Assembly (NCBI RefSeq): GCF_000344685.1
Contig: NW_006920420.1
Location: 164,702-228,701 of the forward strand
Reading direction: 5' to 3'
Origin: Gloeophyllum trabeum ATCC 11539
Taxonomy: Eukaryota; Basidiomycota; Agaricomycetes; Gloeophyllales; Gloeophyllaceae
DNA: 64,000 nt
Part shown: positions 18,268-62,893 of the stretch, piece after piece
How positions within the stretch are numbered: position 1 is the stretch's first letter
Layout: each line of letters begins with the position of its first letter
Program-made: the position numbers and the translations under genes
Notes under the pieces: generated by a model
What the model was told of the DNA's origin: nothing
The model's database searches: none
What the model saw: only the letters and a program-made list of their open reading frames with translations

Positions 18268-19172
18268 ATTTGAGCCTATGGACACCCTCTGCGCACGCAG
18301 CGTCCCTCCTGAACTCGAACGTTCTTTCAGCCTCCTCCTCGTTCTCGTCCTCTGGATCCGGACTGCAATGAATCATCACCCATCTCTTCTCTGACTATCT
18401 GACCAGGCGCTTAGGGCCAATGTCCCGCAAACTGGACACGCAGGTTGTGAGTTGAGCTCTCGTAGCGATGGTCGTGAGATATAGCAAACACGTTGTGGGC
18501 TTTCTGCAACGATTCAATTCATTGGTTGCTACATACGTCATGCGTTCATTCACAGGAGGCCAGGTAATAATGCCGACAGACGTATATGAAGTCAGAGAAT
18601 GTGCTGCAAACCTCATTGAAATCGTATACCGTTGTAAACCCCATACACATGTCGAAATCCGTCATGATGACGATTCAACTGGAGGCGTATCCCGAGAGAG
18701 CGGCCATAAATTTAGCGTCTACCCTTCGGTTCGACGACGCACGATCGCCTTTCTTTGGGGAAACGGGTCTTGCTGCAAGTGATGATCCGGGGTTAATGTG
18801 GCCATGAATGCATATGCTGGAGATTGGTTGCTCAACGGCGAAGCACTCAGAAGGCATCTTCATTATCATCCTTTGCGAACCTTCTGCCTCCAGGACATTC
18901 CCCATGTTTCTTCGAACTTATCAGTACCCTCGGCATACTTATAATTAATTTCCTGGGCGCGAAGATACAAACGTGTTTCCATTCGTGAGCCTGTCAGTTT
19001 GAGCGGGCTGTTACACTGCTGAACTAACCTACGCTGACTTTGAGTACGTACACGATATATAGGGAGCCAGGATATTTCGTCTACACTTAGTGACGGCGCC
19101 GCATGACGGATTGAAAACAAGGCCCAAGTCTTATTTCGTCTCCCATTAGTGGTGTTTATTATTTGCACTTGC
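18268..19172 (+). repeat. 905-bp direct duplication, left copy
   Basis: This segment is identical base for base, as far as I can read, to 19626-20530, and it stops exactly where the N run begins. A minus-strand frame (visible in full in the right copy, 20562-20224) has no family I recognise. The perfect identity and the coincidence with the gap edge point to an unmerged contig overlap rather than a biological repeat. Confidence 0.95.
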
Positions 19173-19625
19173 NNNNNNNNNNNNNNNNNNNNNNNNNNNN
19201 NNNNNNNNNNNNNNNNNNNNNNNNNNNNNNNNNNNNNNNNNNNNNNNNNNNNNNNNNNNNNNNNNNNNNNNNNNNNNNNNNNNNNNNNNNNNNNNNNNNN
19301 NNNNNNNNNNNNNNNNNNNNNNNNNNNNNNNNNNNNNNNNNNNNNNNNNNNNNNNNNNNNNNNNNNNNNNNNNNNNNNNNNNNNNNNNNNNNNNNNNNNN
19401 NNNNNNNNNNNNNNNNNNNNNNNNNNNNNNNNNNNNNNNNNNNNNNNNNNNNNNNNNNNNNNNNNNNNNNNNNNNNNNNNNNNNNNNNNNNNNNNNNNNN
19501 NNNNNNNNNNNNNNNNNNNNNNNNNNNNNNNNNNNNNNNNNNNNNNNNNNNNNNNNNNNNNNNNNNNNNNNNNNNNNNNNNNNNNNNNNNNNNNNNNNNN
19601 NNNNNNNNNNNNNNNNNNNNNNNNN
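19173..19625. other. Assembly gap (453 N)
   Basis: An unbroken run of N. Because the same 905 bp flanks it on both sides, the gap is probably artificial, with a true size at or below zero. Confidence 0.98.
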
Positions 19626-20530
19626 ATTTGAGCCTATGGACACCCTCTGCGCACGCAGCGTCCCTCCTGAACTCGAACGTTCTTTCAGCCTCCTCCTCGT
19701 TCTCGTCCTCTGGATCCGGACTGCAATGAATCATCACCCATCTCTTCTCTGACTATCTGACCAGGCGCTTAGGGCCAATGTCCCGCAAACTGGACACGCA
19801 GGTTGTGAGTTGAGCTCTCGTAGCGATGGTCGTGAGATATAGCAAACACGTTGTGGGCTTTCTGCAACGATTCAATTCATTGGTTGCTACATACGTCATG
19901 CGTTCATTCACAGGAGGCCAGGTAATAATGCCGACAGACGTATATGAAGTCAGAGAATGTGCTGCAAACCTCATTGAAATCGTATACCGTTGTAAACCCC
20001 ATACACATGTCGAAATCCGTCATGATGACGATTCAACTGGAGGCGTATCCCGAGAGAGCGGCCATAAATTTAGCGTCTACCCTTCGGTTCGACGACGCAC
20101 GATCGCCTTTCTTTGGGGAAACGGGTCTTGCTGCAAGTGATGATCCGGGGTTAATGTGGCCATGAATGCATATGCTGGAGATTGGTTGCTCAACGGCGAA
20201 GCACTCAGAAGGCATCTTCATTATCATCCTTTGCGAACCTTCTGCCTCCAGGACATTCCCCATGTTTCTTCGAACTTATCAGTACCCTCGGCATACTTAT
20301 AATTAATTTCCTGGGCGCGAAGATACAAACGTGTTTCCATTCGTGAGCCTGTCAGTTTGAGCGGGCTGTTACACTGCTGAACTAACCTACGCTGACTTTG
20401 AGTACGTACACGATATATAGGGAGCCAGGATATTTCGTCTACACTTAGTGACGGCGCCGCATGACGGATTGAAAACAAGGCCCAAGTCTTATTTCGTCTC
20501 CCATTAGTGGTGTTTATTATTTGCACTTGC
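19626..20530 (+). repeat. 905-bp direct duplication, right copy
   Basis: It starts at the first base after the gap and matches 18268-19172. After 20530 the sequence is unique and runs on through the short minus-strand frames at 20224-20562 and 20570-20761. I cannot assign a function to either frame. Confidence 0.95.
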
Positions 20531-34291: not shown

Positions 34292-35880
34292 ATGATGGCC
34301 TTATACTCTTCAGAGGGTCATATTGAGAACCTTCCCGGTGCATCCGACCTTCCCACCGAGCTCTGCGCAATGATCTGCAAGGAACTAAGAGACCATCTGG
34401 ATCGTAAAGCTCTCTTTGCTCTGGTTCAAACTTGCAAGAAGTGGTCAGAACCAGCACTGGATGCACTGTGGAGGTGTATGGATGATGTAAAACCCCTTCT
34501 TAATCTCGTGCCACACCATGCACTGGCGAACCGAAATAATGTGAGTACGAGAACATGCCTCATAGCGTACGTAACTTGATGCTGGAGTGCCATTCGTAGG
34601 GTCGTACCCCCGCAGACCGAGTGGCACGCGAAGCTTGGACGCGCTTCGATGAATATAGCAAGCGTGTAACGACGCTGTATACGACGTTCAGTGAGCAAAG
34701 ATGCGAGGATTACTCCACAATTCTTCAGCTTGTAGCACTTCGAGGGAGTCCAGTTCTGCCGCGCTTGAAGACGTTCGACTCCACACACTTGTTCCGTTGT
34801 CTACCGCTGGATGCTCGGCTTGTCCCGGCGCTGTCCGCTTTTCTAGCGCCGTCTCTGGAGACGCTGTACATAAGTATAGAGGGGGACCCATTGTTACTGC
34901 TCCAGGATGGATCAGAACTCCGTGGAGGACACTTCCACATCTTCTTGCAAAATCTGCCAGCTAAGGTCCCTCGGTTGAAGACCTTTCAGATCACGCAATG
35001 GGACCTCCCCCATGTCCCGCTCGACTTCATCGGACGCTTCAGGTCACTCGAAAACCTGGAGCTCGACCACATTCCTAACGATATCCTCAGCGATGACGTT
35101 ATGCGGTCTGACCTCTTCAATGCATTCTCGTGCCTCCCATGCCTGAAGGATCTGACCATCAGAGGTGTGCTTAAGCATGCCGGAAATATCCCAGTCGGCT
35201 GGTGCGCTCCTCCGGTACTCGAACGCCTCTGCACCGAGGACATAATGCCTTCAGCGCTCGCAGAGATCCTACGCAGAATGCACTCAGATACTCTGCAGAG
35301 CATCGAGATGAATCTACCCCGAGCTATCGCCCTTGTCAATGGCATGCACTCTCTGTGCCAAGCGATCTCAACGTTTCATCCCATGTTACGATCAATACGG
35401 ATTTTCGTGCAGCACGTAGAAGACACAGATCCTCCAGGCATCCCTATATTCGCGGTATTTGGTCCTTTGCTGGAGTTGCGACATCTGGAAGATATGACAA
35501 TATGCCCTTATCACGTTGATCAAGACGAGGGGACGCCTTGTTACGTGATCAGGGACAATGATATAAAGGAGATGATCTCTGCTTGGCCTAAGCTCCAAAA
35601 CCTACATTTACAATGGTACGGCGATGAGCCCCTGATAACCTTCAATAGCCTCGTCATCATTGCTACCAGCAGCCGACTTCGGCGCTTGGAGCTGGAGCAC
35701 ATATACATCGGAGACGAGGTCGTTGAAGGGGAGATCCCTACCACGAGTCATCAGCTCTATGATCTTTGGCTTAATACCGTGGAGTATGAGAGCGACAAGT
35801 GTAATGCGGAAGTGTTGAAGGGTGCTGTACGTCGTCTGTTTCCCAGTCTGGGTCAGTTTATACTGGGGGCTGAAATGTGA
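34292..35880 (+). CDS. F-box/leucine-rich-type protein of a different subfamily
   Basis: Two exons, 34292-34540 and 34600-35880, with a 59-bp GT-AG intron, giving 509 residues. The start MMALYSSEG is chosen because it opens the frame just before the F-box-like LPTELCAMICKELRDHLDRKALFALVQTCKKWSEPAL. The rest is repeat-like leucine-rich sequence (LETLYISIEG, LKTFQITQWDL, LENLELDHIP, LKDLTIRGV, LRRLELEHIYIG). It shares architecture but little sequence with the other F-box copies here. It is complete and undamaged. Inferred role: substrate receptor of an SCF ubiquitin ligase; target unknown. Confidence 0.8.
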
Positions 35881-44268: not shown

Positions 44269-45125
44269 TTAATGGCAGCGCGCGCCACCAGACGCGCTCG
44301 CCCTGCGTCCAAGTGGTGTCCGAGTCGCAGAGTCGCATCTACTCCGCGTCATACCCCGTGCAGAGATAACAATAGAATGGCTGTGGCAGATAGCCTCCAT
44401 GATATGCTGGCAGTTTGCACTGGGCTCAAGAAATTCGTCAGGAGTCCATATGACAAGGTGTCGACTTGACTTTTGGTATCGTACGTCCTGGCAGATGGTA
44501 TGGGCATTATTAGTGTATTTTAGAGTACAATGTATATGCAGATATCCCCGAGTTCGTCCTACGAGGACAAGTCAGTGCCTTCACCACACGTATGTGGGAA
44601 TATTACGGGATATTCCGTGGCTGATCTGCCCACTTCAATGAAGACATTGAAGCGCCTTCAACTTCACTTCACTCGGGTTGAAGTGTCAAAAACTCCACTG
44701 TGCAACACTGCAACTTCACTGCAGGAGCAACACTAACTGTAGAGAACTTTCAGAATTTTTCACGCAGGCAGCCGAGCCCGGAAAGGTAATTATAACCCAC
44801 TCGGGTCCACAGTGCACCATGACTCACCACTCTTGTTTTGATCAGGACACAGCATTAGCGGAGCAAGATTGGTGATACCCTACTCCAATAAGTAAGCCGT
44901 GGAGCGGCTGCTGAGTGCGGAAAATCTCAAACTTCTCTATCGTTTCGCCGATTGCTGGAAATAGACACTGCTCTAAGTTTTGGGAAGACATACTTAGGGC
45001 GCACGGAGGTCTCATTCGACTTCGCAAGGCATAGTACAACGGACTATCATAGTTGCACTTATGTGACTCGGCGCGGATGAGCAAGAACGTTTCCAAGCTC
45101 AGCCACGTTCATACTTTGCCCTTAT
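44269..45125. other. Intergenic region after the gap
   Basis: No gene recognised. Near 44648-44700 there is a cluster of CTTCAAC/TTCACTTCA and GGTTGAAGTG motifs that form small imperfect inverted repeats. Confidence 0.4.
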
Positions 45126-46306
45126 ATGCCTGCCAGTGGAGGTGTTCCATCTCGTATGGCTAGAACTGTTCTGCAAAGTGCGCGTTCGAGGTTCAATGCG
45201 AGACGCCCTGGCTTTGGGCAGAGTATTACGCGTGCCGTCCTTCGCTTCCTACATTACAGACGTCTCTTTGGCGTACTACAGAGAAGTCAAGGAACCAGGT
45301 TGTATATTACGCGGACGCTCTTCCCTTCTCGAGATATCACTTATCGCCTCTTGTTACAGAATACGAGGTCGAGGAGGCCTTAGTAGACGCGTTCTCGAAG
45401 CTGAGGCTCGCACCACAACTGATTTCCTTCCGACCTTCCCGGAACCGGTGGACAAAGACGACTTCGAGTCCTCGTCGTTCGAGCAAGACCTACTCCAAAC
45501 TATCATAGAGAACCCCCTCCGCAGCTCACCGAACTAGCTCTTAGTAATCTGAAAGCCCGTTCCAGAGACAACGATGGCGAGAGCCTGGAGCTCCCCAAAT
45601 GGAAGAAACCGCTTACTTTGCTCGCGCTGCACGCGCAGTCCGACATGTACGGGGATTATCCTTCTTACCCCAAGTTGATCTGGGGCTCGAATGCTTTTGG
45701 CTTAACGTGGTGTACTGCTACCTTGACCCGTTGCAAAACAGCCTTGTAACATTGTCCGTCGACTCTTGTAACGCGGTAGCGGGAACCTGGAGACCAGGTT
45801 TTCCTGTCGAAGACCTCCACTTTCCTCACCTCAGGAACCTGGAGTTAGGCGGAATGGTGTTTGGCTCCAACACCCCTTTAGAAGCCTTCATCTGTCGCCA
45901 TAAAAATACCCTGCAGAGTCTCAAGTTGAAGAGGTGCTCTATGGTCTAGCTCGAGGTATCAAGTCTGAATGGAGACCAGCCTTCGTCGGATGAGGATACA
46001 GACGCGGAGGATGACCAAGGGAAGATGAAGTTCCAAAATGCGGGAGATGCGTATGGCGGTTCACGGAAGACCCTGTGGCATCCCGTCTTCAAAACTTTCA
46101 TGACAGAATTGCGCCTCAAAAGGCTTGAGGTATACGAGTACGGCTACCGGCGGTGGTCCGACTTTTCCATAGAGGACTTAAAGTACTATTGGGAGGGGAG
46201 GGGCTCGGAGAAGGGAGAAGAGGAGCGCATAGAAGCTGCGGACGAGGCAGCATTAGAGCAGTGGAAGATCTCTGTGGCCCCGCACAAAGTGAATGGTGCC
46301 ATGTAG
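45126..46306 (+). pseudogene. F-box/LRR-type pseudogene with deletion, frameshifts and a stop
   Basis: It begins with a cut-down F-box (LPVEVFHLVWL) joined directly to the later block LELFCKVRVRGSMRDALALGRVL. About 35 residues present in other copies are missing. Around 45500-45620 the family sequence changes frame at least twice. The LRR part DLHFPHLRNLELGGMVFGSNTPLEAFICRHKNTLQSL is then open until a TAG at 45947-45949. The same frame continues beyond it to 46306 with TELRLKRLEVYEYGYRRW, matching the C-terminus of intact relatives. Several independent lesions make this a clear pseudogene. Confidence 0.85.
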
Positions 46307-46920: not shown

Positions 46921-49900
46921 CTACGCGGCCATTTCCGCCAGGAAAGCCGCAACCCTGCCGGCTCTTTCGCCGCTGCATACCCCAGCATGACCACCATCCA
47001 CTTCCTCTACTCTCATACCTTCCAACACACCTCCCCAGCTATCCACATGCTCGCTGCTGCGCGAGCCGGCACGGACATATAGAGAAGGGGCTCGTGTCTC
47101 AAGACCAGGTATCGGACCTTGCTGCGAGTACTCGCCCAACGCGAGAACGTTCTCGGCGTATATAGTCAGCAGCTTCTTCCAGTCCCGCCTCTCCACCGCG
47201 GCCCTCTGACTGCCATCGACGAGTGCTAGCGCAGCAGTAATTTCGGCCGTGAGGGTTTCGACAGCCGCTGCATGCGCACTCAAGGACATCTCGAGCGCTG
47301 ATCCCGGCCCGATTTGGGCATCCGCTTCAGCACTTGTCACGTCGAAGAGGTTGCGCAAGAAGGCGCGCCACGTCAGAGCTTCCACCGCGACATCCATACT
47401 CGGCCACGGTGAATCCAGGAGCGCAACACCCTTCACAGTCATTGCTTCCTTTTGCAGTAGAAGTCTGGCCAGCTCGACGCACACGACACCCCCGAACGAC
47501 GAGCCTACTAGCACTACTTCCTTCACGCCAATGCGCGCCAGGTCGTCCGCGTATCTATCGGCGAGCTCACTGACGGAGTATGGCGTTGCCGGTGTAGGCC
47601 CGCTGGCGTTGAGATTCAGATTGGGATGCTCAACGCCGATCACGGCACCTCCAGGCGGGAGTTGTCGGCATAAGTCGATGTACGAGCCGCAGCTCCCCCC
47701 AGCAGGGGCGAGCAGAGCGTACACTTCGCTCATCTCGCCACATCGGAGTAGCGTGAAATAAGGAGGTAATTTGCCATTGCCTCCGACAGAAGGCGGAGAA
47801 GGGTTCGTGGCGGCATTGAAGCATCTGCTGGCCAGGACCTCTGGAGTCAGGGAGTCGCCCAGGAATGCACTCATGCTGATCCGCAAGTTAGAAAGAACAA
47901 CAGGCCGAGTGGAGAGTACGTACCTCAGTGGGGCAGAAGGCAGTGCATCCGCGAGAAGGCGCATGAGACGAACTTGACCGGTGCTGTCTAAACCTGCAGC
48001 TCGGAGGTCTGCGTCCTTTCCCACTTCACTACCCAAAACTTGAGAAGCGCAGACGGCTATGATTTGGCCGATATCGATATCAGAGGTAGGCGAAAGCGAG
48101 ACTCGTGGAGGGGCAGTGAGGAGTTTGCCCCTCGGTTGAGTGCTTGTCGAACGGGAAGGTTGCGGCGACCGCCGGACTGTAGTGGGTGGGGATCGCAGCA
48201 CACAGTGAGCGTTGACTCCACCCAGCCCAGTACTTGAGACGCAGACGACGGCATCGTCAGACAACGGAAGATCCGTTTGAGCTATGTCGAACGGAAGCGA
48301 CGGATTGATGAGAGGATTGACACGTTCCAGAGACTGAACAGGAGGTATGACACCGTACTGCATCGACTTGCACATCTTGATGACAGATACCAGTCCTGAA
48401 GCAGCCTTTGCGATGAAGGGCTCAATGGGGGGCAATTATTATGACGGGTCAGAGAACGTACTTCACAGTTCCCGAGATTCCCTTTATTCGACCCAACCGT
48501 GCAGCGGTTGTTCGCAGCGCCAAGTCTTGAACGGGCCATTTGAAAACCTTCGAGCTCTAGAGCATCGCCGATAGGAGTGCCACTGCCATGCAACCTGACG
48601 ACGTACGCGCTCAGCTACGTAGAAAGGGATAAAAAGGGTCGAACAACACACTCAGCATAGACCGCTTTCGACATTGGAATCCCTGCGTCTTTCCAAGCAC
48701 GTTCAATGGTGTCAGCTTGGCCTCGCGGGCTGGGAGCCGTGACCCCAGCTTTATCTAGCCGTCCGTCCGACCCTGTCGCGATACCGGATATGACGGAGTA
48801 GATCTTGTCCCCGTCTCGAACCGCATCGTCGAGGGGGCGAAGGACTAGTGCACAAACACCGTCTGCAGGAAGAGTGCCATCTGCTCTGTGGTCGAATGGT
48901 CTGCAATGACCGGAGGGCGAGAATATTTGAGATTCGGCGGTGACGTATCCCTCCCTGTGTACAGTACTATGTCAACAACTAGAAGCGGTTAGATATCCAA
49001 TAACTTACTGAGGGAAGGCAATCGCGACAGCACCAGCAACGGCCATATCACATCTGCCCGCTCTTAACTGGTCCACAGCCACGGAAAGAGCAACCATCCC
49101 ACTCGAGCAAGCAGTGTTAAGAGTCACGTTGGGACCTTGTAAATTGAGATGGTACGCGGTACGCGCAGATATGGAGGGCGTCAAGTCTGCGCGGTGCGTG
49201 CGATAGAACTCGTCTCCGTACACCGTTTCCGTGGCTGAGCAACGCTGAGTGATGAAGAATAACGTGTACTGTTCTAAGTTTGAACATACCATCTTGCCAA
49301 GTGTCGCGAGCCGCGCCAACAAAAAGACCTATGTTGTTGGTACCTTGGATGGATGGTACACGGTTCGCGTCTTGCAACGCTCGTAGTGTCGACTCCATGA
49401 AAAGGCGTTGCTGTGGGTCCATATTTCTAGACGAACTCTCATGAGTATCTAGGTCAATAGAAGACCGTTGTAGACGAACCTAGCTTCATCTTCTTTCAGA
49501 CCCCAAGCGGCAGGGTCAAAGTACTCCACGTCCTTGATCGCGCCCCGCCTCGGTACATAGATCGCGCCGGGGAAGGGTAATACTCCAGATGACCCTTCGA
49601 GTTCGCTTATACCTTCCTTTCTGTCCCTGAAGAGCCGATAGAGCTCGTCGGGGTTCGACGCACCCGGGAAGCGGCCTGAAATGCCGACAATTGCAATCTC
49701 CGATTTGCGACCACCGGAAGGGATCGTGGAGGGAGAACTGCGGCCCTGCGAATCTACGATTTTTGCAGGGCTCTTCGTCCGACCACGACCCAGCCTCGGT
49801 ACAGATACTGGGTCTGGAACTTCGGGGAGCTGAGATGCTGGCTGATACTTCGCAACTAGAGCTGCCATGCTTGAAATGGTAGAGTGCTGGAAAAGATCCA

Positions 49901-52900
49901 CTATCCCGACCTTCACTGACGGCCACTCCTTCTGAAGACCTTGTAGCACTTGAGAGACGGATACACTGGAGTAGAGGGGTGAACTATGAGAATAGCCATA
50001 CTTATCTCAACTGCTATACGCGACATTACCTGTGACCTCCAGCGTCAAAGAAGTTGGTCTCATAGGTAAACGCATTCCGGGATCCCAGAACGGACTTCCA
50101 AATCTCTGCTATCTTCATTTGGATGTCTTCCATATCATCTGCCTGAGGCGATGGAACGGGCTGCGGGATGACAGGCTTGTACGAATCCAACTTGCTCTGT
50201 ACATAAGAGTCCAGTTCGCTTCCACAGAGTAAGTCGACTTGGCCTTGTATGGTCGGCGACGAAAAGATATCCAGAACGGTGATGTTACTGGAGGAGAACT
50301 CCGAGCGAAGTTGAGTAGCTAATTTATTGGCGCTAAGGCTGTAAAGGGAGGTCTGAGCATTGTGACGGGTGGAAAGACTACCACACGGTACATACCTATT
50401 ACCCCCCAGGTCAAAGAAATTATCACTGGTGGTGATGAGTCCCTTCGTACCCAAGATATCTTGCCATATCCGAGTAACAGCAGACGTGATAGCAGGCGAA
50501 GCGGACCTGGAATCGGAACACGACGATGTAGAAGGCGACCGACAAGTTGTAGAGCCCGATGAGACAAGTGATGGCGTCGCCGAAGATGAACTACCAGATG
50601 TCGTAGCTTCAACGATCAACGATTCCATATTGGCAGCGATGGATTTGTGGTCGACTTTGCCGTTCATATTGAGGGGAAGCTGGGGTAGAGCGTAGACGGT
50701 GGAGGGTACCATGTACGCTGGTAATCGCTCCGTCAGACGGTTCCTCAGGACATCTCCGTCAATGTCGTCCGGCGAAACGAACGCCCAAAGCGAAGTGCTC
50801 GACGAGTCGGGCTGTACTGACACTGCCGTTACCTCCGGCATAACGTCGGTAATAGTTCGCTCTACGTCGTCTAGCTCGATACTGTAAGGATGTCAGCTAA
50901 ATGTCTTGGCTACGTCGCCCATGGATACTCACCGATACCCTGGATGAAACACTGATTTCAGCGAGACTATATATTTAAACTAGATGCGTTTACTCACCTC
51001 GTACTTTGACCTCCCGATCTATCCGTCCGACAAGGAACACTGAGCCGTCACCCAGCAACTTGCCTCTGTCCCCTGTGCGGTACAACCTAGCCCCAAGCTC
51101 AGGATGTACTGCGAAACGGTTCTCCGTCAAATCCGGCCGACTCTTATACCTTACAATACATAGAATGTGAGTGTGCAAAGCACATTGGCATTGAAGCAAA
51201 CACAGACCCTCTTCCAACCTGCGGACCTCCGATGCATACCTCTCCTACCTCTCCAGCTGGCAATAGGCGAGTAAAGGCATCGTTGCTGACGTAGAACTTC
51301 ATGTGTTGGTGTGCTGCGCCAATGATGTTTGCGGCTGGTTGTGGGGCGTCCGATGCGATCGGCTGTGGTTGATGAGCCATCACGACAGTGCTAGGACAGT
51401 ACAGTTATGCGTACAACGTCATATTGCTAGTAGAGCTAGTAACGTACCACTCGGTTGGTCCATAGGCATTGACTACCTGGACCCGCGATCGCCACTTCTT
51501 GATAAGATTATCCGGCACCATTTCACCTCCAACGGAGATCTGGCGCAACGAAGGGAGCGGTCTTGAGGTTGGAAGGGTAGCGAGAACGCTCGGTGTGAGG
51601 TGCATGAACGATACCTCGTTCAGGTCGATGACATCTGCGAGATAATCTCCTACTAGCGCCTTCGGCACATCGGCGAAACAAAGCGTGCCGCCGAGGGAGA
51701 GGCACTGGGACCATTCGAGCACTGCAGCGTCAAATGCGAAGGTCGCGAGCTGGAGAACTCGGGTACCAGGACCGATGGTGGTGTAGTTCGAGGTAAACGC
51801 ATTCGCGACGAAGTGGGACAGATTTCGATGTTCAATCTCGACTCCCTTCGGTTGACCTATCATATGATCAGGGAGCCAGCGCAATAAAGAACGTGAGGAG
51901 CCTTCCTCACCTGTACTGCCAGAAGTGAAGACGATGTACGCTAGATCGGTGTTCTGCGTGACTTCCTCTAAAGACTCTGAGGAGAATTTTTCGATCTGGA
52001 CGGTCCTTATATCAAGCGTCTTAACCGGAGACTCCTGTATAATCTCGCGGATAGCTTCGCCCTTCTGGTCGTGAATAACCAGTACAGGCTCAGCAACTGA
52101 GACGATAGAGCGGATGCGCTCCGGGGGGTTACTCTGATCTGCGACAGCGTATGCTGCGCCGGCCTTCAAAACGGCGATTATCCATTCCATAACGGCAGGG
52201 CCATGCTCAAGGTACAGAAGCACCAAGCTTCCGCGACTAATGCCTATCTCACGAAGATCTGATAGGGAGAGATAAGCTCTCGGACGTCAATGAGATAAAG
52301 CATTAAACTCACAATGCCCCAGGCGATTGGATCTCTCATTGAGTTCCTTATACGTCACGGAGAGATTACGCTCCGCAGAGTGCAGTGCGACGAGGTTAGG
52401 GTGAGCGAGAGCTTGCTGCTCAAACCACGCGTGGAAGCGCGCAGCGCTGATCTCATCCACGTTGGACAAGTCGAGTTCCGGAAGTAAACGCGGGAGATGA
52501 CTTTGGACGCCAGAAATTCCGGATACGCCGAAACTTGGGTCAGTCATGGACCGCTCACGTAGTGACGAAAACTCGTCCTTGAGCCGTGCCACATCAGCGG
52601 TCGAGAAGATTATCGGGTCATAAATAACCTAATGCGGCAAAGTGAGTACTGCATCTGTCCAGAGACGATCTTCGTGTAGTACATACCCCGAGTGTAACGT
52701 TGTCGTCCCCTTCGAGGAAACAGAAGAACAGGTCATAAGGACCTTCAACTGGGTACAAGGTACATTCCTTGTGGGAGAGCTTGGGAGAGAGTGTTACGGC
52801 AACTTGAGCCCGGGGAGTCTCCAGCCCACGCGAAGCTCTCGCACGAGAGAGATCAAGAATCGAATAACGTTCGTGCTTCTTCGCAGTGGATATCTGCTTC

Positions 52901-54111
52901 GACACAAGCTTCACCAGGTTATCAAAGGATACCTGTGCAGCGCCGGACGTCTTCCGGGAAGCTTCCGTAAAAGGAATGCGGATCGGCATGGCATTCGCAA
53001 AGTGGCCGATGGACTTCTCCAGACCGGCCGGCCGGCCGCCGAAAGCGACAGTAACTGTTTGATCCGCTCCATAATCTGGTTCTGTGTGGGCGCGAGTAAG
53101 AAGCCCGACCATAGCGACTGCTACGCGGAACCAGGATGTACGGTACTTGCTACCCCAAGCTGCAAGATCCTTTCCCTGATGTCAGGAAACAGTTGACTTT
53201 GCGAAAGAAACGGAGTTTGGCTTACATCCTTCGAGAAATCAAACCAAGTTTGGATCTCCCGGTAGCTCTTGCTTGGGGCCGGACGACTGGAAGGGTTGGT
53301 TATCCATTTGTATGGTCGTACGTGCATGACCTGGTCTAGCCAGAACCTTTCCGCCGCCTGATATTCCGGGGAAGCGGAGAACGCTGCCTTGAAGGGTGTT
53401 AGTATTCGCCGGCTGGAAAATCGCCGTACAATGTAAGTAATCACCTCATACATATGCGCCTGACAGAACGGCTGCTCTGCAGGCGTTGCCGGGGAGCCTG
53501 AAAGCAACTTGAATAGCTCCGCAGAGATGGAGCTCATGCTCGTTCCATCAAGCGCGATGTGGTGCGCGACCAAGTACAGTTCGATCTCACGGTCCGAGAC
53601 GACTGCTAGCCAGCGGCTGGCAAATTCCTGCGACAGGTTCACAGCGGTCCGGAGCAAACCAAGGACCTTGGCTTCACCACGAGCATCGCGCGGTTTAGGT
53701 ACAATCCGGAATGACGCTGTCGCAGTGTCCGGATTGTGTTCAGCTACGAAGGGACGGGCCTGCGACTGGTTTGCACCGTGGAACGTGGACCTTAAGATGG
53801 CATGACGACGCGTCAAGTCGCGGATCGCTATAGAACCTGTTTGTAAGTCCAATATTGCGCTTGATCTGAGAGCAGGACTGACCTTTAGATATGTTCTCCA
53901 GGGTGAAGCCGTGACCGTCAGATGCAGCCTCAGTCTGGTTGAATACAAACTTAAGACTGAGGTTGTATAGCGTATGGTTAGGCGCCATTGAGTAGGCGAG
54001 CCAAAGGCTCTCTTGCGCCTTCGTCATCGGATAGACGGCGATGACTTCTGGAGACAGCGCTCCCGTCGAAGCAGCCGCACCATTGAGCTTTGGACCGGTG
54101 ATGAACTGCAT
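46921..54111 (-). CDS. Hybrid NRPS-PKS megasynthase, C-A-T-T-KS-ACP-TE
   Basis: The frame runs from ATG 54109-54111 to TAG 46921-46923 with many short introns; the product is about 2,000 residues. Domains in order: condensation (about 54060-52630; VYPMTKAQESLW, active site AHHIALDG); adenylation (about 52480-50640; YIVFTSGSTG, FAFDAAVLEW, NAYGPTE, RTGDRG, NMNGKVDHK). Next come two carrier domains, DNFFDLGGNS and NFFDAGGHS, each with its phosphopantetheine Ser split by an intron; ketosynthase (about 49730-48200; NTACSSG, LHGSGT, then SNKGNLGNCE); a third carrier (AAGLDSTGQ); and thioesterase (GSSFGG, Asp in LDSP, GGHAGV). There is no acyltransferase, reductase or methyltransferase. The KS has Asn where the second catalytic His is usual, as I recall for the tenuazonic-acid synthetase TAS1 (C-A-T-KS). 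The product is therefore likely amino-acid-derived and possibly cyclised by the KS or TE. Neighbours: aminotransferase, P450, MFS. Confidence 0.88.
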
Positions 54112-55002
54112 ACTTGTGCGCTAGGTGGACAAGGATGCAGAAGGCGTAAAGTGTGTTTAAGCGTTCTGACTTCCTCGGAGTAGGTAACAGACCAAAGCAA
54201 GTACACGTCCAGTGTATAACAGTCGGCAAGGCGGACTCAAGCTGCCTCCGAGGAAGACATACGTGTACTTGTTTCTTTACCGGATATTGCGTCAATTCGT
54301 AATATTTGCTCCTTTCTCCTGGAGACGGAGCCACTCCTCGATGGGCTTCCCTGAAGCCTGTCCTGAAACCGGTTTGTCAAACTTATTTTCTGCACAATGC
54401 ACTATATCGTCACATTTCCACTGATGCGATGGGTTCGCAAGACCGTGACAATCAATGTGTTGCTCCTTCGCTTCTGGCGAGCCCAGAAGATTGGAATGGG
54501 ATTTGATCATCACCTCGCTCGCTTTCGTTCGTGTTGTACAATGCGCATAAAAGGAATGTTCGCCAATAGGGCTGGCTATGGGGAAAGATCCTCCCTGATA
54601 ACCGTGAATCCTTATCTCCATGTGATGGCGCCGAGCGCCCTTGCGTGCCATAGCCTCGCAAACAGCCGAATGCTGTACACGCGACTGGAGTAGATCGACC
54701 AGATTCATGTCATGGAGATAGATCCCGGCAGTCCTATTTACGTCCAAATCGTCATGATGCCAGTTAACCTCCGTCCTCCATTATTCTGATGTGGTTTCGT
54801 TGACAGACCGTCCATGCAGTGTCTGGCCAGATTGATGGCACCGTGCTTAGCGGTGTTTTGTTTCCGCCGCAAACAATTGGGGTAATGGTGGGTCGCCCGG
54901 GCTGCCGGCAGGCGTCAGTACGTTCTCAGGTATACCTTGCATAAGTATTTTTCGACCCAAGTCCCATCGTCACTACACAGTTACTCCAAGACTGCATTCG
55001 CC
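54112..55002. promoter_or_regulatory. Shared upstream region of megasynthase and aminotransferase
   Basis: The two genes are transcribed away from each other across these 891 bp, so both promoters must lie here. I see no gene. Short frames at 54292-54747 have no family resemblance. A divergent layout allows joint regulation of the first two cluster genes; no regulator motif could be named. Confidence 0.55.
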
Positions 55003-56837
55003 ATGGCCCCTGCTCTCAGCGTTGCCTCCCCGGTTCCTACGACCAAGTCCGCCTCAGAGGGCAAGCCTGCGGGGGCCAAGTCTGCAGTTGCCTCCTGCGT
55101 ACTCCACAAGACGCCTATTACACCCCCTCTTGCTGTCGGGGCGCAAGGCATCTACTTCGACCTAGCTGACGGTCGCCGCATCATCGATGCCGTCGGTGGT
55201 GCAGCAGTAGCCTGCATTGGCAGTGGCCATCCCGTAGTTGTCGAAGCGATCCGCGAGCAGGCTGGGAAGCTATCCTGTAGGTGTTACTACTCTCCGTACG
55301 TCATGTGACCATGTCCTGACATTGTGATAGACACTTTCCATCAGCAGCTCACTAACGAGCCAGTCGAATTGCTCGCGAAGACAATCATTGATGACAGCGA
55401 AGGGGCCTTCGCCCTCGTAGGCTTCGTCGCCGGAGGTACGTTCGGAGATAGACAGTTGTGCCGGTGTACTCACACGCATCATTGCAGGCACTGAGGCGAT
55501 GGAAGGTGCTCTAAAGACGGCGAGACAGGTAAGATCAGGCGAAATTCGTACTTGACATAGTAGTTTGACCTCTTCTGCAGTACTTCTACGAGACGGGCCA
55601 GACCCAACGTACAAAGTTCATCGGAAGAAAGGTGTCCTACCACGGTGCATCTCTTGGTACTCTCGGGGCTGCTTTCAACGCCGCTCGTCGTGCTCCATAT
55701 GAACCCATTCTGGACCACGAGACGTTCCACCATGTTTCCCCCGCGTACTATAAGCGCTTCCATCAGCCGGGTGAGACCGAGGAACAGTACGTTGAGCGCC
55801 TAAAGAACGAGCTTGAAGCCAAATTTCTGGAGCTCGGTCCCGACAAGGTCATTGCATGTAAGTAGGCATCCCCTTCGAGATTAGGCTTTGGGTCCGATGA
55901 TCCGCTTTAGTCGTCGCCGAGACCGTCGTGGGCGCCAGCTCGGGAGTGGTGATTCCCCCGAAAGGCTACTTCAAAGCTGTCAAGTCCGTTTGCGACAAGT
56001 ACGGTGCTTTGCTTGTTCTCGATGAAGTAATGAGCGGGATGGGGCGTGAGTGTCGTCATCTGCTATCCTCATCCATCTGCTAATTTGGATTTCGGTTGCA
56101 GGCGTCGGATCGATGCACGCATGGCAGACGTTTGGCGATGGAGTGTCACCAGACATCCAGGCCGTAGCGAAGGGCCTCGGCGCAGGGTCAGTAACGATAC
56201 ATGATTTACCTTACGTCTGCTGATGTTCTGCCTCCAGCTATACCCCCATGGGGGCTGTCCTGATTTCACGAAAGGTTGCCGACGGCCTCCACAGTAAGAC
56301 CGGCATATGGCAGCACGGCTACACTTACCAGGTAAGAGGCAAGGTTTGTCGGGAAGGATGCCGCGTCTTACTCAGTTCTTCGATTTCTAGGCGCATCCTC
56401 TGTGCTGTGCCGCCTCCCTTGCCGTTCAGAAGGTATTGAAAGACGAGAACCTGATAGCAAATATCCGCAAGCAGGGAGCACTGCTCGGAAACCTGCTGAA
56501 GTCCGGTTTGACTGGCTCCGGTAGCGTTGTTGCCCCGTATGTTTTCGACATTCGTGGGTCCGGCGGATTCTGGGCGGTGGAGTTTGAAGTGGCTCCCGCA
56601 GGAGCTCCCAAGTTGGACTTCGGCGGTAAGAAATTCGGGCCGCTCGTCGAGGCGCGCTGTTTCGAGAAGGGTGTCATGATCATGGGCATGTCGGGTGGCG
56701 GAAGCCTCGATGGCACCGTTGGCGACCATTGCATGTTTGCCCCTGCTTACAACGTCAAGGCTGACGAGGTGCAGCGTATCGTTGAAGTATTCATCCAGAG
56801 TGTAGAGGAGCTAGTGCAGGAGGCCCTCAAGGCGTAG
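55003..56837 (+). CDS. Class III PLP-dependent aminotransferase
   Basis: Eight exons: 55003-55276, 55331-55435, 55488-55528, 55581-55857, 55911-56045, 56102-56186, 56238-56331 and 56391-56837, giving 485 residues. Start taken at the ATG of [10 protein letters not shown]; upstream in-frame codons are not ATG. Family motifs: [46 protein letters not shown] and [16 protein letters not shown]. The PLP lysine is in [11 protein letters not shown], and AHPLCCAA is conserved too. Class III enzymes transfer amino groups between omega-amino or amino-acid donors and keto acceptors. Its place next to the megasynthase suggests it makes or modifies the amino precursor or product. Probably cytosolic; no targeting signal seen. 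Confidence 0.93.
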
Positions 56838-58049
56838 AAATCATGTATTCGACTTGTAGTATATTTCGCTTCAATGGATTTACATCTCTAGTTTCATTGC
56901 AACTTGGTTCGTGCCTTTCCGCGACAAGCCCACGAGCATCGTCCAGTGTCTTTGATTCTGATTCTGCTTTGAAATAATTTCGTTCCCCGACCTCGAGAGA
57001 AACGACTCGAACCTTGGCAGTGAACGACGCCACCCGAGCTTTGTCCGCGGGCACGGTAATGACGGTAATGCTCACAATGTTCTCACTACAAATTGCGCCT
57101 CATGATTCAGAAGATTCAAACCGGCCCGATTCAGCTGTCGAGGCCGAGAGACAGTATGATAAATGACCGGCACCGAGATCCCGCGGTCTTCGGGGTCCCT
57201 GCCAGGCAACGCCGGCGGTACTGTAAATTATAATGAAATGCCTCCGTTCCACTACCGCCCATGCGCTTCGTGGGGGGGATCTACACTTACTTGTCACACC
57301 ACCCCGAAGTCCAAGGATCAGGCAGTGTTCCAAGTGGATGGAGATAATACGCTCTTCTGTCACAAGATGGAAAAGACAATTCGTTATGGATACTGGATAT
57401 TCCGAACCTGCGATCATCGCGTCCGCGCGCAGTGCTGGCCTGAAACGATACGGTACTGAATGTTTTTGGCTCGATCTGACTCGGTGGCTATGGAAGTGAA
57501 GACTACCCCATGTCCGAATAGATGCTGAATGCAGCACCCTATGCTCAGAATATCGAGTCTACTCAACGTTGCCTTGAACAGGGTTAACGCATCTAGCATT
57601 TCCCGAGAAAGCTCGTTATTGAACCGCGCAGCACGCCATAAACCGACACTCCTGATGGCCTAGGTCGGCTAAGTTTGATTCAGATCTCTTGAGGCGACGA
57701 ACTGCATCAGATTTGGTCTGCATTCCGTCGTTTCCACCCTGATACGCTTGCCGTCAAAAGTCTTCCGTATTTCACTCCAGATTACATCTATCAGCTCCAT
57801 TGAGGCGTACCCAAGGCGTAACGAAACAAGGGTCTTGTGCCTTGATTGATGGCGCAAATTTACAAGTGAAATGATTGTAAGGACGGCTCTCGACCTTCCC
57901 CGCCATCCCTCGAACAAGCGCTATTTCTCCCGGGACAGCGCTGCCGCCCCTCAGCGGCCCGACTCGAGTGCTCCTTGAACCCCACAGTAACTGACGCAAC
58001 ATCTTAAGGTGGTGCTGGCCTCATTCAATTCAGCTTGCGGTGGTCCATC
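56838..58049. other. Intergenic region between aminotransferase and P450
   Basis: At 1.2 kb this is long for the cluster. Minus-strand frames at 57669-57917 and 57772-58002 overlap and have no recognised domain. The P450 promoter should lie at its right end. Confidence 0.45.
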
Positions 58050-60252
58050 ATGTTCTTGTCCGCCTTCACCCTCGCCGCCCTCGTAGCGCTCGCCAGGGTT
58101 GCATGGTTTCTGTACCGACGCTCTGTAGTCAAGTCGCCATTACGGACTCTGCCTGGTCCGCCGAGCAAGTCATGGCGTACTGGACATCTCGGGCTACTTT
58201 ACAACCCGTACGGAATGAAATGGCATCATGAGCTGAACCAGAAATATGGAGGCGTCGCAAAAATCAATGGTATTTGGGGTGTAGGTGTCTTTTGATCCTT
58301 GGTCTGTTGTCTACAGGCTAACGTGAACGTATGGACGTAGGATGAGCAACTTTACATTGCGGATCCCAAGGCCTTGCATCACGTCTGTGTCAAGGAAGTC
58401 GACAACTTCGAAGAAACCGATATCTTTGTCCTGTAAGCTGACCTTCGCCGCTCCTTCTTCATCTTTCAGAAATAACGAGGCATTTCCAGTGGAAACCAAC
58501 AAATCTTTGGCGATGGACTCCTCTCCACGTGGGGTGCTAAGCACAAACAGCAACGTCGCATCCTCAATCCCATCTTCTCGACCAGCCACATGCGCGATGT
58601 CACTCCCGTCTTGTATCACGTGATTCACCTCGTAAGTCACGTTAGGTGAATCGCGTATGATTGGCACTCATGTGGTGTGTATAGCTCAAAGACAGAATCG
58701 CCGAGTCCACGGCATCAGGTCCCGCGAAAGTAGACATGCTCGATTACATGATGCGTACTGCTCTCGAGGGCATCGGCCAAGCCGGTCTCGGTCACTCTTA
58801 TGAGGCTTTATCGAAAGGTGACGGTAACTCACCCTTCCGCCTCGCTTTGAGAGGCTTGATGTACGTTTTCGTCGCGTCTCTGTGATGTGTATTTCTTCCT
58901 TAGCTGAGTGTATGCAGTCCGGCGATCTTCTCTCTACAAATCGAGCGTCAAATGCTGCTGCCGGCCATCCTGTCTATCACAAGTCCGTCGATCCGCAGAC
59001 AGCTGGTGGATATGACGCCTAGTCGGCGCCTGCACAAATTGCGGGACATTGTTGACTGCATGTACAAGACGAATAAGCAAGTCCTTGAAGAGAAGAAACA
59101 GGCGCTCAGGGAAGGCGAGGAGAAGGTCTCCAAACAGGTCGGCCAAGGAAGGGACATTGTCAGCGTATTGTGTACGTCGTTGTCTTTTTCACAGTGACAT
59201 TTAACTTATTTCTTTCTCAGTACGTGCTCTGGAGAACAGCTCAGAGGAGGACGGCATGTCCGATTCCGAAGTCCTTGCTCATATGACGTGCGTCTGTCTT
59301 TTGATCACACCTGCGCGCAAAGTCTCATGAGAAATATAATTAGCACGCTGGTCTTTACCTCCCACGATACGACATCTTCAACATTGGCTCACATATTGCA
59401 TTTCCTGGCCATACATCCTGACGTCCAGGAGAAGCTGAGACAAGAAATCAAAACTGCCAAGGACCAATGGGAGAAGGAGCACAGTACCAGGGACATTGCA
59501 TATGACGAGCTCAACGAGCTTCCATTCCTCGAGAACGTCATCCGTGAAACTCTGAGATTGTAAGCGATTGACTCTCACGACAAGACACACAGTGGCTCAT
59601 CTATTCGCTTCAGAGAGGCTCCGGTAACCTTCATGTCCCGAACGTGCGTGCTATTACGTTATCCCGACTTCCAGCATTCATCTGATCAAACAACCTTCAG
59701 TGCTCGTGCAGACTCTGTCATGCCCTTGTCCCGACCCATCAGGGGTACTGACGGGCAACTGATCACTGAGGTCCCTGTCGCGAAGAATCAGAACGTCATC
59801 ATCGGCATCGCAGCTGCAGACCGTGATCCCGAAATTTGGGGAGACGACGCTGCGGAATGGAAGCCTGAGCGATGGACAGACGGCGTCCCCAAGCGCGCAG
59901 CGGAGGCACATTTGCCCGGTATCTACGCTGGAACGTGAGTGTCACACCGTTATTCCGCGGTGGGGGCACTGACTGAGCGTTGCTCTAGCATGGCTTTCTT
60001 GGGTGGAGGCCGAGCTTGTATCGGCTATAAGTTCGCCCAGCTGGAGATCAGTATGTGCCGCTATTCCTTGTTTATGTATCTCCATACTAATGAATGATTG
60101 TAGAACTTATCATCTCGGTGCTGATTGATCATTTCCGTTTCTCGCTTTCCGACGAGGAGATCACCTGGCACCTTGCCAACATCCAGATGCCCTATGTCGA
60201 GAGCAGAGTCTCGGATGGTCCCACTTTGCCCTTGACGGTCGCCCGGCTTTGA
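58050..60252 (+). CDS. Cytochrome P450 monooxygenase
   Basis: Eleven exons: 58050-58280, 58341-58432, 58490-58631, 58685-58860, 58918-59171, 59221-59287, 59344-59559, 59614-59643, 59701-59934, 59989-60050 and 60104-60252, giving 550 residues. The N-terminal membrane anchor (LSAFTLAALVALARVAWFLY) is followed by the proline hinge LPGPPSKSW. The I-helix motif is LVFTSHDTTSS. ENVIRETLRL is the ExxR helix and PERW the meander. The heme loop FLGGGRACIGYKFA keeps the cysteine ligand. It is expected to be an ER-anchored, reductase-dependent hydroxylase or oxidase. Its position between the aminotransferase and exporter genes suggests a tailoring step on the megasynthase product. No CYP family is assigned. 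Confidence 0.94.
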
Positions 60253-60637
60253 GCGTGTTACTTAGTACTCCTTATATCGACTTAATTGAGAACCCCGTAG
60301 GGGTAGTGTGCAGTAAAATAAAGAACGTGCTTTTACGTGCTCTTCGCTCTGGTAGCTCCCGCTCAGAATTTGACCAACTGTGGTGTACCTTCAGCAATTC
60401 TGAGTTTACTGTCTAGCGCAAGTCTATGAACTTGAATAGTAAACAGGTCAGACAGTATAAGATTTGTGGTGTACATATCACGCAACAGGCGAAGGTACCC
60501 TTAAGGCTTCCTCGCGCAATTGCAAACTTACAGACGAGTTATGCGCTGTGCGCTTCGCCAAGTGGTTTTCAACCTCTGTATTCCAGCTGCTGCATCGAAA
60601 TGACAGTCCAATTGCTTGTGTGCGATCAATGCTCATG
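60253..60637. other. Convergent intergenic region
   Basis: The 3' ends of the P450 and MFS genes face each other. No feature seen. Confidence 0.5.
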
Positions 60638-62893
60638 TTACGCCTTATCCTCTCCGCCCTCCTGGACCCCCTCCAACCCCCTCTTCTCTTTCCCCCCAAA
60701 CACCGAGCTCGCCTTCCTCACCACCCACGACATCCGCGCATGGCCCCCGTCGCCGCCCACCTCGGCCGTCCCGTGCTGAGGACTCGTGCTCGGCATCTCC
60801 GCCATCTCGATGGCCTTCTCCTGTCGCTCCTCCGCCGCCGTCTTGGTGAGCGACCACCCGCCCGCCCAGCCGAGCCACGCGCGCGCGGGGACGTGCGGGC
60901 CGCGCAGGAGGTGCACGGCGAGGTTGAGCGCGCCGAGGGCGACGCAGAACCCGCCCGTTGCGCGGTAGCCGCCCTCGACGAACACGCGCGTGCCGACTGC
61001 GGTGCCCATTACTTGGCCCTATGCAAAGGTAGCTTGGTTAACTTTGGAGGGTATCTGGAAGATCAAAGAGAGATAGACTCACGAGGAAGATCTGAGATTA
61101 ATATTCACATGGGAAAGGAAGAAGGGAAGGTGAGATTTAGGTTGGTTGTTGGGAGGGAGGATGTGCGAGAGAAGATCCTGCTTACCGATAGGATGAGCAC
61201 TGCATTGAGGCGCGCGCGCGCTTCTGGGTTGATCCTGGCACAACAAACACAAGAATCCCTCAGCATCCGCTTCGCGTGATGGCTACTTGCAAACATACCC
61301 AAACACCACGTTCGTGACAGACACCTGCAGGCCCTCAGCCCCAACATCGAGAACTACCCACCACGATCCAAGTCATCGAATCTCTTCGTTAGCAAAAACA
61401 TTCTGGGGGATTTAGGCGTATGTTCCGTACCGAATATCGCCACAATGACCGCGCCGATGTTGATGCCCCCCGCGGCGGTCTGGATGGCCATGGACACAAT
61501 GATGAGGATGATCGAGAAGAGGGTCGCCGTCCAGGGGAGCAGGCGGTCGATCGCGCGCCCCACGAGCGGGGCCATCGCGATACCGAACATGCCCACCAGC
61601 CCGAACAGCCCGATCTCCAGCCTGCGCGTATACAATATTATATTTCTCGCATTAGCTTTTTCACTCGAAAACAAGCAACAGAGACGTTGACAGGGAGGAC
61701 ACTGACGTGTTGTAGTGGTACGGGGCGTCCGAGAGGAGGAACGTCAGCGTAACCCAGAACGCGCTGTATATCGCGCTGTCCGCGAAGAACAGGATTGCGC
61801 CCTGCACGAGCAGCGGCTCCGTCACCGCGAACTTGGCCATCGTGTACAGAATTTGCAGATACGTCAGCTGCGGGTTCTTCGGCGGCGTGTCCGGGCACAC
61901 GAAGTACAGCACTAGCAGCAGGAGGTACTGGCCTGCGCGGGGGCAAGGGGGAGGATGGGTACGATGTGAGCGGGTGTAAACGAGGAAGGGGGAGGGGGGA
62001 CTGACCGCCGACGCCCATCCAGTAGATGTTCTTGTAGCTGGAGAACTCGGCGATGATGCCGGAGAGCACGCGCGCGAGCATGACACCCATGAGGAGCCCG
62101 CTGAGGACAATCGCGATGGACGACGCGCGCCGCTGGGGCGGCGCGAGCTCTGCTGTTAAGGGAATGAGGATCTGGGTCATATGTCAGGTCGGGCCAGTTG
62201 GACTGGATGTGACATTAGTATGTTAATATGTCTTACCTGCGGCGTGACGGAGAAGACGGCGACGAAGAACGATATGGTCTCGAACGCGACGAGAGAGCGG
62301 GTTATGGCGAGCCCGATGCTCAGTGATGCGGATGCGATCATTAGGAGGAAGAGGAACTGGCGGCGGCGAATCAGGTCTCCCAGAGGAGAGAGTAGGGTCA
62401 ATCCGACTGCATACCTGTTGGTGGTGAAGAGGTTGTGAGGTCCTTATATCAGACATGAAAGTACTGGACTTACCCTGCTTGCAGTAAGCTGGGGATTCGT
62501 GAAACCTCGACGTAGTCGACGTTGAACTCGTCCGCGAGTTGCACTGGAGAGACATTATTTCTCCCATACTAGGCCTTTACTTGTGCTACGCACCAAGTAT
62601 TGGTTGGCAGTAGTATAGATTCATACCTATTGAAAGAGATTAGATCCTTGATAAACTGATCGAACTAACAAGCATCCTGACAAGCTAGAATCATTCATGT
62701 CAGAATACAAAGATTGTTGTAGTACAAAGGACTCTGTCTGACTGAAGGTACTCGCGAATCCGAATATGACAGTGTGCGGGATGCTGAGTTCAAAGGGTGC
62801 ATCTGGATTATGCCGCAAGTAAGGCGGGATCGGGAGGAATCCAAAGTCCAGCTTGCGCAGGGGCTTTCTTTCTTGTGGGAGGTTGTCTGACAT
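60638..62893 (-). CDS. Major facilitator superfamily transporter
   Basis: The start ATG is at 62891-62893 and the end at 60638. The gene is split by roughly nine introns; exons resolved are 62893-62743, 62626-62594, 62543-62474, 62414-62237, 62171-62006, 61932-61707 and 61621-61431, with a few more to the 3' end. After a cytoplasmic leader (PLRKLDFGFLPIPPYLRHN) come the first helix, NLYYCQPILVQLADEF, and the MFS loop YAVGLTLLSPLGDLIRRR. Later helices include FETISFFVAVFSVTPQ, SGLLMGVMLARVLSGI and LFGLVGMFGIAMAPLVGRAIDR. The tail after the last helix is hydrophilic. This is the DHA1-like type often found as exporter in metabolite clusters. Export of the cluster product is inferred from position. 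Confidence 0.88.

What the first reader, a model, noticed from the sequence alone, without database searches (positions are those of the whole stretch)
46921..62893. Candidate undescribed biosynthetic cluster around an AT-less NRPS-PKS
Four adjacent genes make a compact pathway: a C-A-T-T-KS-ACP-TE megasynthase, a class III aminotransferase, a P450 and an MFS exporter. I know of no characterised basidiomycete cluster with this domain order. The sequence shows the domains directly; the joint role of the four genes is inference from clustering.
Basis: partly seen in the sequence, partly recalled or inferred. Interest (0 to 1): 0.9.

Follow-up and report, generated by a model that had tools for sequence, protein, structure and literature searches.

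The report
TAS1-like hybrid synthase with thioesterase tail
A wood-rotting fungus (Gloeophyllum trabeum) carries a four-gene locus around a hybrid enzyme that belongs to the family of the tenuazonic acid maker TAS1 but has an extra carrier-thioesterase tail and a partner aminotransferase whose close relatives occur in five other fungi with the same kind of enzyme; it is predicted to make an unknown ring-shaped small molecule, likely modified and exported by the neighbouring genes.

Summary
The synthase splice model equals an intron-free 6389-nt database contig except one residue, so the gene is transcribed. New here: (1) the ACP-TE tail, catalytic residues intact in 10 of 10 aligned rows (of 14 TE-bearing models), in both phyla; the TAS1 paper describes fungal homologues as C-A-PCP-KS; (2) the aminotransferase belongs to a paralogue clade seen in six of seven Agaricomycete species with the tail, and in four its contig has exactly the length of the synthase's. 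Best reading: a variant of the TAS1 kind, predicted to make a 3-acyl tetramic acid that the aminotransferase likely aminates. Product, role of the tail, and membership of P450 and MFS are untested. Probably the NRPS-PKS hybrid already reported as upregulated against another brown-rot fungus.

The parts
46921..54111 (-). Synthase gene, 19 exons, 2062 aa, C-A-T-T-KS-ACP-TE
   Evidence: Splice model equals transcript-derived P0001 except one residue; Pfam
52518..54036 (-). Condensation domain (residues 26-456), HHIALDG motif
   Evidence: Pfam PF00668; HHIALDG exact in 9 of 15 members, HHxxxDG in 15 of 15
50656..52424 (-). Adenylation domain (488-966), code by motif DALHIVAVV
   Evidence: Pfam PF00501; code read with GrsA positions that are recalled
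50227..50481 (-). Carrier T1 (1025-1090), DLGGNS
   Evidence: Pfam PF00550
49848..50136 (-). Carrier T2 (about 1121-1195), DAGGHS
   Evidence: one of three PF00550 stretches; ends set by motif
48196..49703 (-). Ketosynthase (1244-1654), Cys-His-Asn triad
   Evidence: 292 bits to TAS1 KS 6kog; tree and triad
47815..48090 (-). ACP (about 1690-1765), AGLDS, interrupted by intron 47923-47876
   Evidence: third PF00550 stretch; Ser in 10 of 10 aligned rows
46924..47742 (-). Thioesterase (about 1790-2062), GSSFGG, Asp, His
   Evidence: Pfam PF00975; Ser, Asp, His in 10 of 10 aligned rows
54112..55002 (.). 891-bp divergent intergenic region between synthase and aminotransferase, possible shared promoter
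   Evidence: coordinates of the two models; promoter role inferred
55003..56837 (+). Class III aminotransferase, 485 aa, 8 exons
   Evidence: PF00202; clade shared with 5 other species that have the tailed synthase
58050..60252 (+). Cytochrome P450, 550 aa, 11 exons
   Evidence: PF00067; cluster membership inferred
60638..62893 (-). MFS transporter, 504 aa, 12 exons
   Evidence: PF07690; cluster membership inferred

Best explanation
This locus encodes a TAS1-family C-A-T-T-KS synthase with an added ACP-thioesterase tail beside an aminotransferase, a P450 and an MFS transporter, and it is predicted to make a 3-acyl tetramic acid that the aminotransferase and P450 likely modify and the transporter would export. 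Proposed steps: the A domain loads one amino acid (substrate unknown) on a T domain; the first-position C domain acylates it with a beta-ketoacyl-CoA; [quoted passage not shown] the ACP-TE tail would clear or offload stalled chains or take a further carrier-bound step; the co-occurring class III aminotransferase would convert the side-chain ketone to an amine. Shown: gene structure, transcription of the synthase, domain order, KS clade and triad, intact tail residues, and co-occurrence of synthase and aminotransferase. Inferred: every chemical step, the product, and the roles of P450 and MFS.
For: The TAS1 KS 6kog scores 293.5 bits, above every other of the 60 chains listed except 7zma, whose 412 bits are two KS of 203 and 207. 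Identity to TAS1 KS 43.8%, to 17 bacterial KS 31.5-38.4%. In a tree of 47 KS (TAS1, 29 of 38 fungal family models, 17 bacterial rows picked from the hits), the 30 fungal rows form a clade with support 100; 30 of 30 have Cys-His-Asn, 17 of 17 bacterial rows have His at the third place. PMC4640141 (passages and section 8): the TAS1 KS alone made tenuazonic acid from N-acetoacetyl-L-Ile-SNAC, and its fungal homologues share Cys-His-Asn. No AT domain. Some models of the window's own KS subclade end right after the KS, which suggests that the KS can release product by itself. A-domain code DALHIVAVV is the same in 8 of 12 basidiomycete rows, window included. Aminotransferase: the five most identical of the 120 hits listed are Athelia psychrophila 76%, Mycena capillaripes 70%, Favolaschia claudopus 68%, Mycena citricolor 67% and Mycena belliarum 65% (ninth by score), all species with a TE-bearing synthase; contig lengths equal the synthase's in four of five (4552061, 2255522, 60155, 1095130). 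These five and the window form a clade of support 100 apart from 33 other copies (29 named, 4 unnamed). Other copies in Favolaschia, M. capillaripes and M. belliarum have other contig lengths, and G. trabeum's own second copy is on contig C5.
Against: The KS is not terminal as in TAS1, and ACP Ser plus TE Ser-Asp-His are kept in 10 of 10 aligned rows, which argues for a step on a carrier after the KS that a pure TAS1-type release does not need. Cys-His-Asn is also the triad of type III PKS (PMC4640141) and, from recall, of FabH, which do decarboxylative condensation, so it does not exclude elongation. The window's KS lies in the sister subclade of TAS1, not with it. Athelia's synthase and aminotransferase have different contig lengths (188706, 269405). 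Crepidotus has a TE-bearing model (P0039) but no hit of the cluster-type aminotransferase among the 120 listed; Cudoniella and Drechmeria likewise. No product is known.
Confidence: 0.5

Rival explanations
1. The KS-ACP-TE is a true AT-less extension module: malonyl is loaded on the ACP in trans, the KS extends the aminoacyl chain once, the trans aminotransferase aminates the beta-ketone on the ACP, and the TE releases the product.
For: ACP directly after the KS with intact Ser, and intact TE triad, in 10 of 10 aligned rows; the aminotransferase clade goes with the tailed synthase in six of seven Agaricomycete species; class III aminotransferase domains (PF00202) occur inside NRPS-PKS proteins in the list (for example P0144, P0164, P0173).
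Against: KS clade and triad are those of the cyclase TAS1, with Asn where 17 of 17 bacterial KS rows have His; tail absent in 19 of 38 family models; no trans-AT gene among the four.
Confidence: 0.27
2. Synthase and aminotransferase work together, but the P450 and MFS are unrelated neighbours with other jobs.
For: Only the aminotransferase was shown to co-occur (P450 and MFS relatives were not searched for lack of searches). The P450 fused to a Mycena citricolor family member is 28% identical to the window P450 and matches other G. trabeum P450 exons better.
Against: Contiguity: both lie within 9 kb of the synthase start; PMC7399148 states that most upregulated SM genes lie near P450s, other oxidoreductases or transporters, without naming this one in the text seen.
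Confidence: 0.3
3. The tail is a relic or a proofreading unit only, and the gene works as an ordinary TAS1.
For: TE identity is 29-39% against KS 51-75% in five pairs, and the TE is the least conserved domain in three of the five; 19 of 38 family models have no tail.
Against: ACP Ser and TE Ser, Asp, His kept in 10 of 10 aligned rows from two phyla.
Confidence: 0.2

Closest known systems
TAS1, tenuazonic acid synthetase of Pyricularia oryzae (C-A-PCP-KS)
   Same: C-A-carrier-KS order, no AT, Cys-His-Asn KS, KS in one clade (PMC4640141 passages)
   Different: Here two T domains, and ACP plus TE after the KS; sister KS subclade; partner aminotransferase; substrate and product unknown
Basidiomycete TAS1 homologues (sub-clades B and C of PMC4640141)
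   Same: Phylum and KS type; this protein is probably of that group (inference)
   Different: That paper's section 8 describes fungal homologues with the architecture C-A-PCP-KS; its supplementary table was not seen. PMC10161427 (passages) retrieved 12 Basidiomycota sequences but discarded truncated ones and ones with unrelated domains
Upregulated NRPS-PKS hybrid of G. trabeum (PMC7399148)
   Same: Very probably the same gene: only contig C11 has Condensation and KS matches together
   Different: Gene identifier and Figure 5 not seen; KS type, tail and aminotransferase are not in the passages seen ('aminotransferase' 0 times in the main text)
Laccarin of Laccaria vinaceoavellanea
   Same: An acylpyrrolidinone from a mushroom (PMC6997535, passage); Laccaria amethystina has a family synthase (P0011)
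   Different: No biosynthetic gene seen for it; a lead only

Membership tests
TAS1-type NRPS-PKS | KS grouping with TAS1 KS | tested here: met
   Support 100 for TAS1 plus 29 fungal rows against 17 bacterial KS; KS of ordinary fungal PKS were not in the tree
TAS1-type NRPS-PKS | Cys-His-Asn triad | tested here: met
   Window and the 29 other fungal rows
TAS1-type NRPS-PKS | C-A-PCP before a KS, no AT | tested here: met
TAS1-type NRPS-PKS | KS is the last domain | tested here: not met
   ACP and TE follow; so filed as a variant, not as a TAS1
TAS1-type NRPS-PKS | Acetoacetyl-CoA plus isoleucine as substrates, Dieckmann release | not testable with these tools
   needs an enzyme assay
trans-AT PKS module | KS with Cys-His-His | tested here: not met
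   Asn at the third place
trans-AT PKS module | Separate AT gene in the cluster | tested here: inconclusive
   None among the four genes, but 7295 N directly to the right leave room
Class III aminotransferase | PF00202 over cut-off | tested here: met
   242.3 bits against 30.5

The most novel reading that the evidence does not exclude
A second class of TAS1-family enzymes, spread over Basidiomycota and Ascomycota, in which a Cys-His-Asn KS hands its product to a built-in ACP-TE, joined in Agaricomycetes by a dedicated trans aminotransferase, giving aminated tetramate or beta-amino products unknown from TAS1.
Probability: 0.3. Interest if true: 0.72.

Novelty: new variant of a known kind. Interest (0 to 1): 0.52.

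Why it matters
TAS1 is the known case of a fungal KS used as a cyclase instead of an extender. A sister lineage that keeps an active-looking ACP-TE behind the same KS, and in one group goes with its own transaminase, makes it testable how that KS changed job, and points to an uncharacterised family of nitrogen-containing metabolites, perhaps used in combat between wood-rot fungi.

Tried and rejected
P450 fusion as a link: P0130 of Mycena citricolor is a family synthase fused to a P450, but that P450 is 28% identical to the window's and has better matches elsewhere in G. trabeum; dropped. TE fold: AlphaFold without alignment gave mean pLDDT 45.6; no fold search was run. TE by sequence against the PDB: best Vlm2, 38 bits, and Pks13 30.7 bits, under its cut-off, in NCBIfam; too weak to tell an editing from a cyclising TE. 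A-domain substrate: code read, no substrate assigned. Gene order in relatives: not readable here; only exact contig lengths could be compared, and identity of contigs is inferred from equal length in the same species. Chance that the four relatives share the synthase's contig, taking every genome as 35.5 Mb (G. trabeum's size; that the others are not smaller is recalled): 4e-7. Literature on mushroom tetramates gave only laccarin.

Counts and dropped rows; 38 fungal family models that I picked, near-duplicates included (six M. citricolor copies among the TE-bearing): 14 with a TE, 5 with an ACP only, 19 with neither; the tail HMMs were seeded with six of these rows, and many models are partial, as P0002 shows, so absence of a tail is weak evidence. 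One search used 29 of the 38; the nine left out are near-duplicates or partial (P0002, P0064, P0072, P0074, P0075, P0121, P0124, P0125, P0131); of these P0125 and P0131 showed no readable Asn stretch. One search aligned 10 of the 14 TE-bearing rows; the four left out are M. citricolor near-duplicates. One search used 38 of the 120 listed aminotransferase hits plus the window's. All hit lists are capped at 120.

Full report
What is there. I rebuilt four genes by hand from the sequence. The synthase model was then corrected at two acceptor sites and one further intron by P0001, an intron-free 2062-aa frame on a 6389-nt contig; the corrected splice gives the same protein with one residue different. 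Because the genomic span is 7191 bp, that contig must come from RNA (inference; its sample is not named).

Domains. Pfam on P0001 gives Condensation, AMP-binding, three PP-binding stretches, both ketoacyl-synthase halves and Thioesterase, and no acyltransferase. The neighbours are a class III aminotransferase (head to head with the synthase over 891 bp), a P450 and an MFS transporter.

What the KS is. Among the 60 chains listed against solved structures the TAS1 KS (6kog) scores 293.5 bits over its full length; only 7zma scores higher, by summing two KS of 203 and 207 bits. The third catalytic residue is Asn. In a tree of TAS1, 29 fungal family members and 17 bacterial KS, the 30 fungal rows form a clade (support 100); TAS1 sits with Cordyceps militaris and Botryobasidium (98), the window in the sister clade of 27 (100), beside Athelia (93). 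Cys-His-Asn is present in 30 of 30 fungal rows and 0 of 17 bacterial ones (15 Cys-His-His, 2 Gln-His-His). PMC4640141 (passages, section 8) reports that the TAS1 KS performs the final cyclisation, that fungal homologues share Cys-His-Asn, that sub-clades B and C are Basidiomycota, and describes fungal homologues with TAS1's architecture C-A-PCP-KS.

What is new. The tail: 14 of 38 family models carry a TE, 5 more an ACP only, 19 neither. TE-bearing members occur on both sides of the split of the sister clade into a mainly Agaricomycete branch (17 rows, support 99) and a mainly ascomycete one (10 rows, support 99; Cudoniella, Drechmeria), so the tail is probably old there and lost several times, or cut off by gene prediction; P0002 shows that the latter happens. 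In the 10 tail-bearing rows aligned, ACP Ser and TE Ser, Asp and His are kept in all, although the TE is the least conserved domain in three of five pairs, while the KS is the most conserved in five of five.

The partner. The aminotransferase's most identical listed relatives are in Athelia psychrophila, Mycena capillaripes, Favolaschia claudopus, Mycena citricolor and Mycena belliarum (65-76%), each of which has a TE-bearing synthase. In four of these five the contig length equals that of the synthase's contig (60155 nt in Mycena citricolor); in Athelia it does not. The six, window included, form a clade with support 100 apart from 33 other copies. The other copies in Favolaschia, M. capillaripes and M. 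belliarum have other contig lengths, and G. trabeum has its own second copy on C5. Of seven Agaricomycete species with a TE-bearing model, only Crepidotus lacks a cluster-type hit among the 120 listed. So the pair is conserved, and the aminotransferase looks like a recruited paralogue. No such evidence exists for P450 and MFS, whose relatives I could not search.

Edges and expression. Left of the synthase lie frames that look F-box/LRR-like by eye; right of the MFS the assembly has 7295 N starting at the window's end, then a frame that reads as bleomycin hydrolase by eye. PMC7399148 (abstract and passages) reports one NRPS-PKS hybrid of G. trabeum among nine SM genes upregulated in the interaction zone with Rhodonia placenta, in antiSMASH clusters drawn in a figure that I could not see. 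Condensation matches exist on C10 and C11 only, and KS matches on C11 but not on C10 (exon-by-exon searches, so weak pieces may be missed), so that hybrid is very probably this gene.

Verdict. A real, transcribed biosynthetic locus with a conserved pair of genes; a new variant of the TAS1 kind, not a categorically new AT-less assembly line. The best mechanism is TAS1-like ring closure by the KS followed by tailoring; the role of the conserved ACP-TE is the open question, and an on-carrier step with trans amination is the strongest rival.

Noticed in passing
window 18268-19172 and 19626-20530: Two 100% identical 905-bp direct copies on either side of an N run (19173-19625): likely a gap-edge assembly duplication.
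   Followed up: partly
L009 1-7295 (G000:C11, just right of the window): 7295 N directly after the window end, so the right edge of the cluster is not visible.
   Followed up: partly
window 226-1377 -, 2878-4275 -, 34600-35880 +, 45067-46306 +; L010: Many frames that look F-box/LRR-like by eye; one tested and confirmed by Pfam F-box-like (2881-4275).
   Followed up: no
P0130 (Mycena citricolor): A family synthase model fused in frame to a cytochrome P450 instead of ACP-TE; a real fusion or a gene-prediction join.
   Followed up: partly
KS tree: Mycena capillaripes P0080 and Rhodocollybia P0098 group with the ascomycete members (support 99), suggesting old paralogy or transfer between phyla.
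   Followed up: no
window 55003-56837: G. trabeum's own cluster aminotransferase is not among the 120 listed database proteins (best 76%, Athelia), so it may be missing or mis-modelled in public annotation.
   Followed up: no
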